Of a stretch of 64,000 nt of DNA, positions 54,549 to 64,000 are shown one piece after another. The translations under genes were made by a program, and so were the position numbers. Under the pieces are notes generated by a model. That model was not told the origin of the DNA. It worked only from the letters and a program-made list of their open reading frames with translations, and made no database searches. Where the stretch lies: positions 36,003,034 through 36,067,033 of the forward strand of contig OX419762.1 of assembly GCA_948567375.1 (NCBI GenBank), in the 5' to 3' direction. The first letter of the stretch is position 1. Each line of letters starts with the position of its first letter. This DNA is from Lunularia cruciata (Eukaryota > Streptophyta > Marchantiopsida > Lunulariales > Lunulariaceae).

Positions 54549-54622
54549 CCAATAGAGGGCATATGTCTATTGGAGTTGTTCCAATAGAGGGGTTATGTCT
54601 GTTGGAGTTGTTCGGTGGGATC
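54549..54622 (+). pseudogene. C5 cytosine-DNA methyltransferase domain, first piece (motif I)
   Basis: Encodes L-L-E-L-F followed by G-G, the start of the S-adenosylmethionine-binding motif I (F-x-G-x-x-x-G). The reading frame continues correctly at 62455 when the inserted gypsy element and one copy of its 4-bp target duplication are ignored. A 32-bp tandem duplication (54549-54580 and 54581-54612) precedes it and shifts the frame. The piece is the N-terminus of a methyltransferase domain lying after Gag and protease. Confidence 0.7.
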
Positions 54623-55314
54623 TGTGAGCCGGCCTGTCTCTCACTCAGGATGAACCTCTGATGGCTATTATGGTAGCGCACCATGGACTAAGAAGGCAAG
54701 GAACCCCAACTCCATCATACTCCTCCAAGGCTAACACTCCAAGACTCAAGACATTGCTCACTAGAGAACTCAATGAGAGAGAGATAGTTGCAAATGAAAG
54801 GATGATGAGTACCTCCTCACTCCTTGTTTATATACTTGTGAAATAGTTACGTACCAAAGTTACTAATTACCGTAGTAACTCAAGTTACTAGACTAAAAGT
54901 CAAGTAAAGTCAAAAAGTAGAAAGGAATATCCATTCACATGGGCATATTCCCCTAAGCATGTGGTCTTATCTTGACCCAACCACTAAAGCAAGGATTCCT
55001 TCACATGGGCTATCCTTGGACTAAAGAAGAATCCAAAACAAAAAGGCTTGCGGGCCCAAGAGTTCTCAACTCTTTCCCCAAAGCCAAACACCTAGGAATA
55101 ATACCAAGTCAACACACTAAAATCCAAAATAGTGGTGCTCATCTTTTCTACTTCCTCTAAAGTAAGGTCCCATCTATCTTAGCTATGACTAACTTTAGCT
55201 AACCATGACTAATATAGAACCATCCTTTATCTCTATATAAATAATATCTCTTAAGTACTTGTAATACCAAGCTAAATATCACAATACCACACACATGCAC
55301 AAATGGGTGTTACA
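54623..55314 (-). repeat. 3' LTR of the young Ty3/gypsy element
   Basis: Same sequence as 61759-62450 by eye. A TATATAAA box is on the minus strand at about 54834-54827. Two short plus-strand frames inside it are also present in the other LTR and look fortuitous. Confidence 0.93.
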
Positions 55315-55331
55315 TTTACCCCCGGACTAAG
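55315..55331 (-). other. Polypurine tract of the young Ty3/gypsy element
   Basis: Minus strand CTTAGTCCGGGGGTAAA directly precedes the 3' LTR, the site where plus-strand DNA synthesis is primed. Confidence 0.6.
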
Positions 55332-55362
55332 TTTTCACTTTGTCCTCAAAGTGAAGGTCTCT

Positions 55363-61758: not shown

Positions 61759-62450
61759 TGTGAGCCGGCCTGTCTCTCACTCAGGATGAACCTCTGATGG
61801 CTATTATGGTAGCGCACCATGGACTAAGAAGGCAAGGAACCCCAACTCCATCATACTCCTCCAAGGCTAACACTCCAAGACTCAAGACATTGCTCACTAG
61901 AGAACTCAATGAGAGAGAGATAGTTGCAAATGAAAGGATGATGAGTACCTCCTCACTCCTTGTTTATATACTTGTGAAATAGTTACGTACCAAAGTTACT
62001 AATTACCGTAGTAACTCAAGTTACTAGACTAAAAGTCAAGTAAAGTCAAAAAGTAGAAAGGAATATCCATTCACATGGGCATATTCCCCTAAGCATGTGG
62101 TCTTATCTTGACCCAACCACTAAAGCAAGGATTCCTTCACATGGGCTATCCTTGGACTAAAGAAGAATCCAAAACAAAAAGGCTTGCGGGCCCAAGAGTT
62201 CTCAACTCTTTCCCCAAAGCCAAACACCTAGGAATAATACCAAGTCAACACACTAAAATCCAAAATAGTGGTGCTCATCTTTTCTACTTCCTCTAAAGTA
62301 AGGTCCCATCTATCTTAGCTATGACTAACTTTAGCTAACCATGACTAATATAGAACCATCCTTTATCTCTATATAAATAATATCTCTTAAGTACTTGTAA
62401 TACCAAGCTAAATATCACAATACCACACACATGCACAAATGGGTGTTACA
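61759..62450 (-). repeat. 5' LTR of the young Ty3/gypsy element
   Basis: Same 692 bp as 54623-55314. It holds the promoter; the TATATAAA box on the minus strand is near 61970-61963. Confidence 0.93.
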
Positions 62451-62454
62451 GATC

Positions 62455-63375
62455 AGCACTGGACTAGTTGCGGTATTATAGGCGGGTATACGAGTACAGA
62501 GGTACTTGTATCTAGAGAGAGATGAGACTGCTAGGTAAGTATCTCAACATCATGTGGCACACTTGGCCTATCGGTATCCGGAGTTATTACCGATGTCAGT
62601 AGTTAGAGGTTACCAGAAGGCCTTACCAGCAGACATTTCCTTATTGGGGGCGCATGATTTGGAGAGATATGGACCTATTCGCTTGGTGATTTCTAGATGG
62701 CCATGTCAAGGACATACACATGCTAGTCAAGGTTTGGATCTTCAGGATACACTTTGGGAGATGTTACGGATACTACAACATCTCCAAGTTCATCAGTCCA
62801 TTTCTCCAACTTACCTTTTGGAGAATGTTCCTTTGATGGGTGATTCTCGCACCAGAGTGGTGGTAAGTACACATCAGGTCCATTCTTGGATGGGACCTAT
62901 TGTGTTGTTAGATGCAGCCAGAGTGGGATCACGGGCTCATCATCTTCATCTTTGGTGGACAAACCTCTTACCCAGAGAGGTTTTACAACGTGCTTATGAT
63001 AGGATTCAACGACTTGACCATATCTTTGTTGATGACATCTTGGAAGTCGTGCGTCAGTCTTAGAAAGTGCTAGTGGCTAATAGGTCACCTATAGTAGTGG
63101 TGAACCTAGTGGGATAGCCTAGAGCCACATTTCACACACTCATGAGTTTCCCAGGGTCTCATGCTTTTCAAGAGGCAAGATTTGGACTTGTTTGGGACTC
63201 ATAGTTATAGCAGTTGGTGGAGCCCAACGCTGATGAAAGAGAGTAGGCGATGGGTTTTCACATCGGTATTACCATTGTTCTAGTAGTGTTAGAGGCATCT
63301 AGGTATCAGGTGTTAGGTGAGGCTATGGACCTGAACTGTTTGACTTGGATTGTAAGCCTTGGCTTGGCCGAGTAG
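62455..63375 (+). pseudogene. C5 cytosine-DNA methyltransferase domain, main piece (motifs I end to X)
   Basis: One frame throughout, interrupted by several stops and open from 62554 to 63060. It begins with the end of motif I (S-T-G-L) and a motif II-like Y-L-Y-L-E-R-D-E. Motif IV follows with the catalytic Cys in W-P-C-Q-G-H (62701-62712), then motif VI E-N-V (62821-62829) and a V-L-L-D-A-A-R-V-G-S-R-A-H region like motif VIII (about 62910-62955). Motif IX-like N-A-D-E-R-E...A-M-G-F (63226-63260) and motif X-like V-L-G-E-A-M-D-L-N (63310-63342) complete the order. C5 methyltransferases flip and methylate cytosine. The V-L-L-D-A...A-H-x-x-x-L-W-W-T-N-L block recalls DNMT3-type enzymes; that assignment is tentative. 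The domain lies between protease and RT of a gypsy pol, not in a host gene. Confidence 0.8.
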
Positions 63376-64000
63376 CATAGGATGCGCTTGATAGGCATCA
63401 CCACTCAAACACTTGTGAGCCCTGTGCCTATCGAGACAATTCAGGCACATGCTGGGGGTGATGGATCGAGTGGACATGGTATTCTTGGGACACAGCCAGT
63501 AGCTATTAAGGAGAATGGTCTACTTGGAGTCCATCCAGGTGAGCATGGGCTACTTGGATTACACCCTTGGTCCACTTGGGATGCAACTAGAGGACATGTG
63601 GAGCTTGCAACTAGAGTGGAGGGAGTTTTTCACACAGAGGTTGGGATCTCTAGTGGTCGGAGGCATGACACTATTGCTCCTAAGGGCCCTGTGTAGTAGC
63701 CAGTCAGTACGTCTTCCACTCCTACTACAGTTACAGAGGATACGTGGGAGCCAGATCTTGAACCCAAGCTTATTGGAGAGGAAAGACGGTTTGGAGGTTC
63801 TTGAGGAGCCACATGAGTTGTTTTGCCTTCAATAAGAAGGATTTGGGTGCTCTGAAGGGACCTAGTATATGGATTGAGCTAACTAGTGATACACCAGTTT
63901 TCCAACATCCTTATCAATATAGTGATATGGAGAGGACATTGATTTAGAGCCGGAGTAGTGACCTTTTTGATGCTGGTTTGGTGGAGATTTCACATGGAGA
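63376..64000 (+). pseudogene. Linker and RT start of the methyltransferase-bearing element (runs off the window)
   Basis: After a linker with H-P-G-E-H-G-L-L-G-L-H-P-like repeats (63480-63570), the frame from about 63836 reads K-D-L-G-A-L-K-G-P and I-E-L-T-S-D-T-P-V-F-Q-H-P-Y. It continues Y-S-D-M-E-R-T and L-F-D-A-G-L-V-E-I-S, the region just before the Ty3/gypsy RT fingers. One stop (TAG) is at about 63945. The rest of RT, RNase H and integrase lies beyond the window. Confidence 0.7.

What the first reader, a model, noticed from the sequence alone, without database searches (positions are those of the whole stretch)
54549..64000. A Ty3/gypsy retrotransposon that carries a C5 cytosine-DNA methyltransferase
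Between protease (53.6-54.2 kb) and RT (63.8 kb) of a gypsy element lies a domain with C5-methyltransferase motifs in the right order: motif I, P-C-Q-G catalytic motif IV, E-N-V motif VI, a motif VIII-like block, IX- and X-like blocks. It is all in one frame with the adjoining pol. Plant retrotransposons are normally silenced by DNA methylation, so an element encoding its own methyltransferase is striking. From memory and unchecked, retrotransposon-borne methyltransferases have been reported in dinoflagellates and a charophyte alga. A multi-copy, nested presence together with a PHD finger would extend that. Possible roles, all inferred: self-silencing to limit damage, hiding among methylated repeats, or marking targets.
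Basis: partly seen in the sequence, partly recalled or inferred. Interest (0 to 1): 0.92.

Follow-up and report, generated by a model that had tools for sequence, protein, structure and literature searches.

The report
Jumping gene carrying DNA-methylation enzyme
A very common virus-like jumping gene in what is probably a liverwort genome carries its own DNA-methylating enzyme and a histone-reading finger, and relatives of it occur in other liverworts, in peat mosses and in green algae; this matters because methylation is the mark that plants normally use to silence such elements.

Summary
The core observation holds. The window carries a dead copy of a Ty3/gypsy element with a C5-methyltransferase (MTase) between protease and RT. 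A younger, unrelated gypsy (54623-62450) splits the MTase at motif I. This copy is not in one frame: it has 8 in-frame stops, and its longest piece fails Pfam alone. The host genome holds hundreds of further copies, some with unbroken MTase frames. Layout: gag-like part, zinc-knuckle-like motifs, PR, DNMT3-like MTase, in-frame UAG-CAG-CCA (TMV-type leaky stop; TAG at 946 of 978 exact genomic junctions), RT-RNaseH-INT, PHD finger. Terminal repeats are split (A-coding-B-A-B), with 4-bp target duplications in 5 of 6 copies. The MTase belongs with DNMT3 by profile and fold and shows purifying selection. Relatives occur in Marchantia, Riccia, Calypogeia and Sphagnum; distant ones with another domain order in Haematococcus, Monoraphidium and Chromochloris. 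The 23 retro-MTases tested form one clade against host DNMT3, DRM and human DNMT3A. KnitGypsy-Dnmt3 of the alga Klebsormidium is the known precedent, so this is a new variant of a known kind. Its role is not shown: copies decay at CG/CHG like a young non-MTase gypsy, but the family keeps CG and CHG sites that two other gypsies lost.

The parts
49894..50344 (+). Left terminal repeat A of the outer MTase-gypsy copy (the left end has no B part)
   Evidence: blastn with A of L011, 87% identity
52878..53129 (+). Zinc-knuckle-like part of gag (open piece with the second, CCHC-like motif)
   Evidence: translation; motif named by eye; no Pfam zinc-knuckle or gag hit
53706..54290 (+). Protease region
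   Evidence: tblastn of L010 PR region, 84% over 195 aa, E 3e-104
54534..54622 (+). N-terminal part of the MTase up to motif I (LELFGGI), with a small local duplication and frame change
54619..54622 (.). Left copy of the GATC target duplication of the nested element (right copy 62451-62454)
54623..62450 (-). Nested, unrelated Ty3/gypsy element (LTRs 54623-55314 and 61759-62450, 692 bp, 100% identical)
   Evidence: gag-PR-RT-RNaseH-INT by Pfam
55363..60198 (-). gag-pol ORF of the nested element (1611 aa); no MTase family among its Pfam matches
62452..63396 (+). Rest of the DNMT3-like C5-MTase (motifs IV, VI, VIII, IX-X), pseudogene with 8 in-frame stops
63694..63696 (+). In-frame TAG between MTase and RT (leaky-stop position; the next codon is also TAG in this copy)
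   Evidence: family-wide
63828..64000 (+). Start of RT; RT-RNaseH-INT go on beyond the window
   Evidence: tblastn; continuation in L029
1..642 (+). 3' end of a second copy of the family: integrase end (1-291) and PHD finger (499-642)
   Evidence: tblastn, PHD 85% over 48 aa, E 3e-22
813..1491 (+). Right terminal repeats B-A-B of that second copy (B 813-918, A 921-1385, B 1385-1491)
41509..42410 (-). Integrase fragment of a divergent relative of the family
   Evidence: blastn 80.7%; tblastn 61-64%

Best explanation
The outer element is an old copy of an abundant Ty3/gypsy family of a liverwort (probably Lunularia cruciata; inferred). The family encodes Gag-PR-MTase, then, past a leaky UAG, RT-RNaseH-INT-PHD. 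Shown: anatomy, DNMT3 kinship, copy number, leaky-stop context, purifying selection on the MTase, integrase-type target duplications, taxonomic spread. Inferred: because the MTase lies before the leaky stop, it is made in Gag-like amounts and enters the virus-like particle; there, or in the pre-integration complex, it most likely methylates the element's own cDNA, so that the new copy enters chromatin already marked. The PHD finger on the integrase end would read histone H3 and steer insertion. The split repeats suggest an intermediate in which the two ends meet head to tail (B-GC-A, palindrome GACAGCTGTC) before integrase opens it. I give about 0.97 to the identity, about 0.9 to leaky-stop expression and about 0.45 to self-cDNA methylation as the selected role.
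For: PF00145 in 3 of 3 ORF1 sequences scanned. Profile of 23 relatives: the first 29 of 53 PDB sequences are DNMT3A/B/C (best E 5e-23), then DRM (2e-11). AF2 model of the metagenome relative P0049, pLDDT 78.8, pTM 0.83: the 50 Foldseek matches listed are all entries of DNMT3A/B/C or their complexes. 978 exact MTase-RT junctions genome-wide, reversed control 0, 946 with TAG; UAG CAR YYA is the TMV readthrough context (PMC2754532, passages). PHD by Pfam E 2e-10. MTase selection: private omega* 0.63 (P 0.018), shared 0.41 (P 0.008); RT 0.63 (P 0.010) and 0.30 (0 of 1000). 4-bp target duplications in 5 of 6 copies. Against Marchantia P0001 the MTase is 74% identical, PR 58%.
Against: No activity was measured. 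Post-insertion CG/CHH and CHG/CHH decay in 16 MTase copies (6.3, 5.5) is close to that of seven copies of a young non-MTase gypsy (6.1, 4.5), and the family is less CG- and CHG-depleted than two control gypsies, so no clear footprint of extra self-methylation. INT shows no significant purifying selection in the same test (omega* 0.90, P 0.33; 0.75, P 0.18), and the test rests on 16 copies chosen for long frames. Of those 16 none was shown to have every frame unbroken. In PMC5890265 the KnitGypsy MTase gave no de novo methylation in yeast, called inconclusive there.
Confidence: 0.72

Rival explanations
1. The MTase acts on host chromatin or on host DNMTs rather than on cDNA: a local or dominant-negative DNMT3-like protein that keeps the active source copies from being fully silenced.
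For: The family keeps CG (o/e 0.39-0.46) and CHG (1.14-1.22) in 16 of 16 copies, while the nested gypsy ORF has 0.13 and 0.44-0.48 and an older gypsy 0.24-0.39 and about 0.5. A codon shuffle gives the same picture: CHG 144 observed against 141 expected in L014 ORF2, but 78 against 103 in the nested gypsy; CG 92 against 131 and 28 against 110.
Against: Only two control families, of lower G+C. A recent arrival by horizontal transfer would also keep CG and CHG. Copies decay after insertion much like the young control, and the old window copy is depleted (CG 0.27-0.34, CHG 0.72-0.80).
Confidence: 0.22
2. The MTase is a passenger: captured long ago, no longer used, kept only by the reading frame.
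For: Activity is unproven; only 1 of 15 junction-chosen copies had a full-length MTase match without stops.
Against: Catalytic-core motifs are kept in better-preserved copies and in relatives from bryophytes and algae. Missense changes are fewer than expected. MTase is more conserved than PR.
Confidence: 0.06
3. Several independent captures of DNMT3 genes by green-lineage gypsy elements, one per architecture, as PMC5890265 argued for K. nitens.
For: Three positions of the MTase in pol match three RT groups.
Against: 23 retro-MTases form one clade (100/98) against a host DNMT3 exon, two host DRM and human DNMT3A, and the RTs of MTase-bearing elements group 99/98 against two other gypsies. Few outgroups, no K. 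nitens sequence, 181 columns; only three bryophyte RT rows.
Confidence: 0.3
4. Chance motif matches or a host gene caught next to a gypsy element.
For: The window piece alone has no Pfam DNA_methylase hit.
Against: E 1e-120 to a Marchantia protein, 0 hits from 200 shuffles; MTase in 11 of 12 junction-chosen copies.
Confidence: 0.01

Closest known systems
KnitGypsy-Dnmt3 of the charophyte alga Klebsormidium nitens (de Mendoza et al. 2018, PMC5890265; abstract, passages and sections 9 and 11 seen)
   Same: LTR gypsy element with a non-rearranged, DNMT3-related MTase inside pol; repeats arranged as in DIRS elements with gypsy domains; purifying selection reported there.
   Different: Here land plants (liverworts, Sphagnum) and chlorophytes; PHD finger after the integrase; UAG-CAG-CCA between MTase and RT; at least three MTase positions; hundreds of copies. 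The paper's main text has no occurrence of PHD, Marchantia, chlorophyte or moss; its figures and supplements were not seen, so a PHD finger or other order in KnitGypsy is not excluded.
SymbioDIRS-Dnmt3 and SymbioLINE-Dnmt of Symbiodinium (PMC5890265)
   Same: Retrotransposon-borne DNMT; the DIRS form has DNMT3 in pol and A-coding-B-A-B repeats.
   Different: Tyrosine-recombinase or LINE machinery there; DDE integrase and 4-bp target duplications here.
Animal DNMT3A/3B catalytic domain
   Same: Motif order, PC, ENV, AHRxR-type block, closest fold.
   Different: About 20% identity; only PF00145 found in the three ORF1 sequences scanned; separate retro clade.
Plant DRM2
   Same: DNMT3-related.
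   Different: DRM has rearranged motif order; weaker profile match (2e-11 against 5e-23). Host DRM genes are present separately.
TMV-type leaky stop (UAG CAR YYA)
   Same: TAG CAG CCA matches it exactly (PMC2754532 passages).
   Different: Sits between MTase and RT of a retroelement; readthrough not measured.

Membership tests
Ty3/gypsy LTR retrotransposon | PR, RT, RNase H then DDE integrase, in that order | tested here: met
   Pfam RVT_1, RT_RNaseH, Integrase_H2C2, rve in L014 ORF2. PR region upstream by homology; no Pfam protease hit in the three ORF1 scanned, but relatives P0018 and P0019 carry PF13650
Ty3/gypsy LTR retrotransposon | Two complete direct LTRs | tested here: not met
   Left end has A only; right end B-A-B in 15 of 16 copies, L017 single B
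Ty3/gypsy LTR retrotransposon | Short target-site duplication from DDE integrase | tested here: met
   4 bp in 5 of 6 copies; L013 lacks it
DIRS/PAT retrotransposon | Split direct repeats A-coding-B-A-B | tested here: met
DIRS/PAT retrotransposon | Tyrosine recombinase, no target duplication | tested here: not met
   rve integrase, no recombinase family in the ORF1 and ORF2 scanned; target duplications
DNMT3 family MTase | Motifs I, IV (PC), VI (ENV), VIII, X in non-rearranged order | tested here: met
   L014 ORF1, A1 alignment
DNMT3 family MTase | Closest in sequence profile and fold to DNMT3 | tested here: met
DNMT3 family MTase | De novo CG methylation activity | not testable with these tools
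   needs expression of the domain
DNMT1/CMT | Profile match to DNMT1 or CMT | tested here: not met
   none among 53 PDB sequences at E up to 0.01
DRM | Rearranged motif order | tested here: not met
   motif I precedes IV, VI, VIII, X
KnitGypsy-Dnmt3-type element | DNMT3 within pol of a gypsy element, DIRS-like repeat layout | tested here: met
   against PMC5890265
KnitGypsy-Dnmt3-type element | Common descent of MTase and RT with K. nitens elements | not tested
   no K. nitens sequence was listed
TMV-type leaky stop | UAG followed by CAR YYA | tested here: met
   946 of 978 junctions TAG, with CAGCCA fixed by the search pattern; TAG CAG CCA read in 9 of 16 copies
TMV-type leaky stop | Measured readthrough | not testable with these tools
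   needs a reporter test

The most novel reading that the evidence does not exclude
DNMT3-carrying gypsy elements are one old lineage of the green plants, from chlorophyte algae to bryophytes, with a single acquisition of the MTase that has since moved to at least three places in pol while a PHD finger stayed on the integrase end. They inherit and spread their own methylation writer and histone reader together, and they escape the long-term CG/CHG erosion that other gypsies of the same genome suffer.
Probability: 0.4. Interest if true: 0.87.

Novelty: new variant of a known kind. Interest (0 to 1): 0.72.

Why it matters
Cytosine methylation is the main brake on plant retrotransposons. A lineage that carries and conserves the writer of that mark, has hundreds of copies in a land plant and recurs in bryophytes and green algae turns a curiosity of one alga and one dinoflagellate genus into a broader phenomenon. 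It makes the open question of why an element would encode a methyltransferase testable in the model liverwort Marchantia polymorpha. Ten searches of the held open-licence paper library (listings, with passages of some papers) showed no report of such elements in bryophytes or chlorophytes; other papers were not searched.

Tried and rejected
Chance motifs: rejected. Host-gene insertion next to a gypsy: rejected. DRM, CMT, DNMT1 origin: rejected by profile. Extra CG depletion as a sign of self-methylation, as reported for SymbioLINE: looked for, opposite found. Pfam and PDB with the bare window piece: no usable hit. Viral contigs with one protein as query, which finds close relatives only: no match. 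Comparison with K. nitens sequences: none listed in three protein searches (in 29 and 56 only the best 120 of 158 and of 234 hits were shown). Primer-binding site: looked at by eye only, nothing clear. Species: Lunularia cruciata inferred from assembly size (566 Mb against 580 Mb in PMC9985172, passages) and liverwort hits; not proven. Choice of rows: the trees use 53, 35 and 27 rows picked by me from 276 proteins, loci, window frames and a PDB sequence.
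Full report
What is in the window. The outer element on the + strand starts at 49894 with a terminal repeat. It runs through gag-like sequence, a zinc-knuckle-like stretch and a protease region (53706-54290) to the start of an MTase domain at 54534. At 54623 it is interrupted by an unrelated Ty3/gypsy element on the - strand (54623-62450). 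That element has 692-bp LTRs that are 100% identical, a GATC target duplication and a 1611-aa gag-PR-RT-RNaseH-INT frame without an MTase match. The insertion falls inside motif I of the MTase: with the insert left out, the flanks read LELFGGISTGL in one frame. The MTase goes on at 62452-63396. The stretch matches the MTase of another in-genome copy at E 2e-164 and a Marchantia protein at E 1e-120, against 0 hits from 200 shuffled sequences. This copy is dead: 8 in-frame stops and frame changes, with PR, MTase and RT in frames 3, 1 and 3. Of 103 base differences from L014 over this stretch, 65 are C-to-T or G-to-A in the window copy.

Better-preserved copies. The own genome (565.8 Mb in 74 contigs) gave 123 scored PF00145 matches from 2161 candidates. 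A few of these are host genes: a DNMT3-like exon (L001, best to DNMT3C/3A, E 2e-15), DRM (L026, E 2e-103; L028) and a DNMT1/CMT-type exon (L003). I fetched 20 stretches, 16 of them family members chosen for long frames; none of the 16 was shown to have every frame unbroken. ORF1 of L010 (1428 aa) and ORF2 of L014 (1037 aa) show the layout. PF00145 lies in ORF1 (E 3.4e-7); RVT_1, RNase H, Integrase_H2C2, rve and a C-terminal PHD finger (E 2e-10) lie in ORF2. The PHD finger matches CHD4, MLL, PHF21A and AIRE-type fingers in the PDB, among others.

The leaky stop. In 9 of 16 copies the frame from the MTase runs unbroken to one TAG, followed in frame by CAG CCA; six others stop earlier and L012 has no PCQG. 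Across the genome the junction pattern with a free codon has 978 exact matches (reversed pattern 0), and 946 of these carry TAG; of the first 100 listed the rest are TAA 4, TAT 1, GAG 1. UAG CAR YYA is the context described as essential for TMV readthrough, and gypsy elements of rice are mentioned as readthrough candidates (PMC2754532, passages). Since the MTase lies before this stop, it should be made with Gag-PR rather than only with RT (inference).

Terminal repeats. Where the left end was in the fetched stretch, copies start with repeat A (about 450 bp, TGTC...) and run into the coding part without B; 15 of 16 end B-A-B (B about 107 bp...GACA), with two bases, mostly GC, between B and A. 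L017 has a single B. Five of six copies checked have 4-bp target duplications (cata, actt, tagc, gagg, actc); L013 has none. This is the DIRS-like arrangement that PMC5890265 describes for KnitGypsy (figure legend), but here with integrase-type insertion. The B-A junction reads GACAGCTGTC, a palindrome, in 11 of 16 copies; I infer an end-to-end (circle-like) intermediate. A1 and A2 differ by 0.3 to 3.9% in 12 of 13 copies compared and by 8.3% in L013, so many insertions are recent.

Is the MTase a resident domain? I took 12 junction places with TAG and 3 without, chosen without looking at the MTase. It is present upstream, at least in part, in 11 of 12, or 14 of 15; in the miss (L044) an inverted B end of another member abuts just upstream of the junction. 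One of the 15 had a full-length MTase match without stops.

Which MTase? A profile of 23 relatives finds DNMT3A/B/C first (29 of 53 PDB sequences, best E 5e-23), then DRM (2e-11), bacterial MTases (from 2e-6) and DNMT2; no DNMT1 or CMT. An AlphaFold2 model of the metagenome relative P0049 (pLDDT 78.8, pTM 0.83) has only DNMT3 entries among its 50 listed matches (best 6w89, E 1.5e-17, TM by target 0.78).

Selection. With mutations reshuffled over sites of the same base and context in 16 copies (omega*, P for private; then shared variants): MTase 0.63, 0.018; 0.41, 0.008. RT-RNaseH 0.63, 0.010; 0.30, 0 of 1000. Gag part 1.25, 0.79; 0.53, 0.17. PR with spacer 1.13, 0.71; 0.56, 0.045. Linker 0.67, 0.19; 0.21, 0.031. 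INT 0.90, 0.33; 0.75, 0.18. PHD 0.23, 0.10; 0.15, 0.12 (few changes). The copies were chosen for long frames, so the test is indicative. Against Marchantia P0001 the MTase is 74% and PR 58% identical; RT of other Marchantia proteins is 70-85% over the part aligned, with one fragmentary exception at 54% (P0152).

Spread. Protein searches name relatives of the MTase in Marchantia polymorpha (51-73% over the part aligned), M. paleacea (72%), Riccia sorocarpa (69%), Calypogeia fissa (60-69%) and Sphagnum fallax, troendelagicum, tenellum and jensenii (49-73%), besides metagenome proteins and one bacterial MAG entry (P0070), probably misbinned. More distant ones lie in pol proteins of Haematococcus lacustris, Monoraphidium neglectum and Chromochloris zofingiensis and many metagenomes (the last name is my reading of the source tag Chrzof1). 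Mapping domains shows PR-MTase(-RT) in the bryophyte set, RT-RNaseH-MTase-INT, mostly with PHD, in the algal set, and MTase-RT-RNaseH-INT in P0045 and P0048. No vascular plant is named among the hits shown (120 of 158, 120 of 234). RT and MTase trees show the same three groups (three bryophyte RT rows only). The 23 retro-MTases tested form one clade, 100/98, against a host DNMT3 exon, two host DRMs and human DNMT3A (181 columns, few outgroups). Sphagnum sequences sit inside the liverwort group, against the species tree; horizontal transfer or old paralogues could explain it.

Methylation footprint. Private C-to-T changes per site are 0.292 in CG, 0.253 in CHG, 0.046 in CHH: copies are decayed as methylated plant repeats are. 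Control: the nested non-MTase gypsy, seven copies of a 1.2-kb piece, has CG/CHH 6.1 and CHG/CHH 4.5, against 6.3 and 5.5 for the 16 MTase copies; a subset of seven MTase copies gives 12.1 and 8.3, and the control rests on 18 CG sites. An older gypsy in the window has 3.3-4.2 and 2.2-2.9, against 5.3 and 3.7 for the window MTase copy at like divergence. So the ratios are equal or somewhat higher in the MTase family, which does not settle the matter. Yet the family as a whole keeps CG (o/e 0.39-0.46) and CHG (1.14-1.22) in 16 of 16 copies, while the nested gypsy ORF has 0.13 and 0.44-0.48, and the older one 0.24-0.39 and about 0.5; the old window copy of the MTase family is at 0.27-0.34 and 0.72-0.80. 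The MTase family is also richer in G+C (0.49-0.53 against 0.42-0.44). So there is no clear sign of stronger self-methylation over time, and a hint of the reverse.

Mechanism. I hold self-methylation of cDNA in the particle as the likeliest selected role (about 0.45), a local anti-silencing or decoy role next (about 0.22). Both are inference.

Comparison with the known. PMC5890265 (abstract, passages, sections 9 and 11 seen) reports the precedent in K. nitens and Symbiodinium and concludes independent acquisition in K. nitens; a 2025 survey (PMC12344493, passages) mentions retrotransposon DNMT3 with reference to that work. New here, as far as the searched library shows: land plants and chlorophytes, PHD finger, leaky stop, several MTase positions, copy number, target duplications, and a one-clade result. 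The rank is a new variant of a known kind.

Noticed in passing
P0025, P0043 (metagenome proteins), C-terminal part after the PHD finger: A further SAM-MTase-like stretch (DPWAGTG ... SPWF / SPHF) follows the PHD finger in algal-type pol proteins; it may be a second methyltransferase-like domain. Judged by eye only.
   Followed up: no
MTase tree (P0022, P0050 against P0001, P0052, L010): Sphagnum MTases fall inside the liverwort set with short branches, against the species tree; possible horizontal transfer between bryophytes.
   Followed up: partly
window 54623-62450: Very young gypsy (LTRs 100% identical) strongly depleted of CG (o/e 0.13) and CHG, although its listed copies are 98-100% alike; 40 matches scored from 716 candidates.
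   Followed up: partly
window 1489-12271 and 42407-49593: Many broken repeat copies in both orientations, mostly 80-92% alike, part of them another gypsy family.
   Followed up: partly
window 36168-36932: 254-aa open frame, not identified, overlapping a minus-strand leucine-rich-repeat-like frame at 35242-36198.
   Followed up: no
L017, right end: A copy whose right end has a single B instead of B-A-B; perhaps recombination between the two B copies.
   Followed up: no
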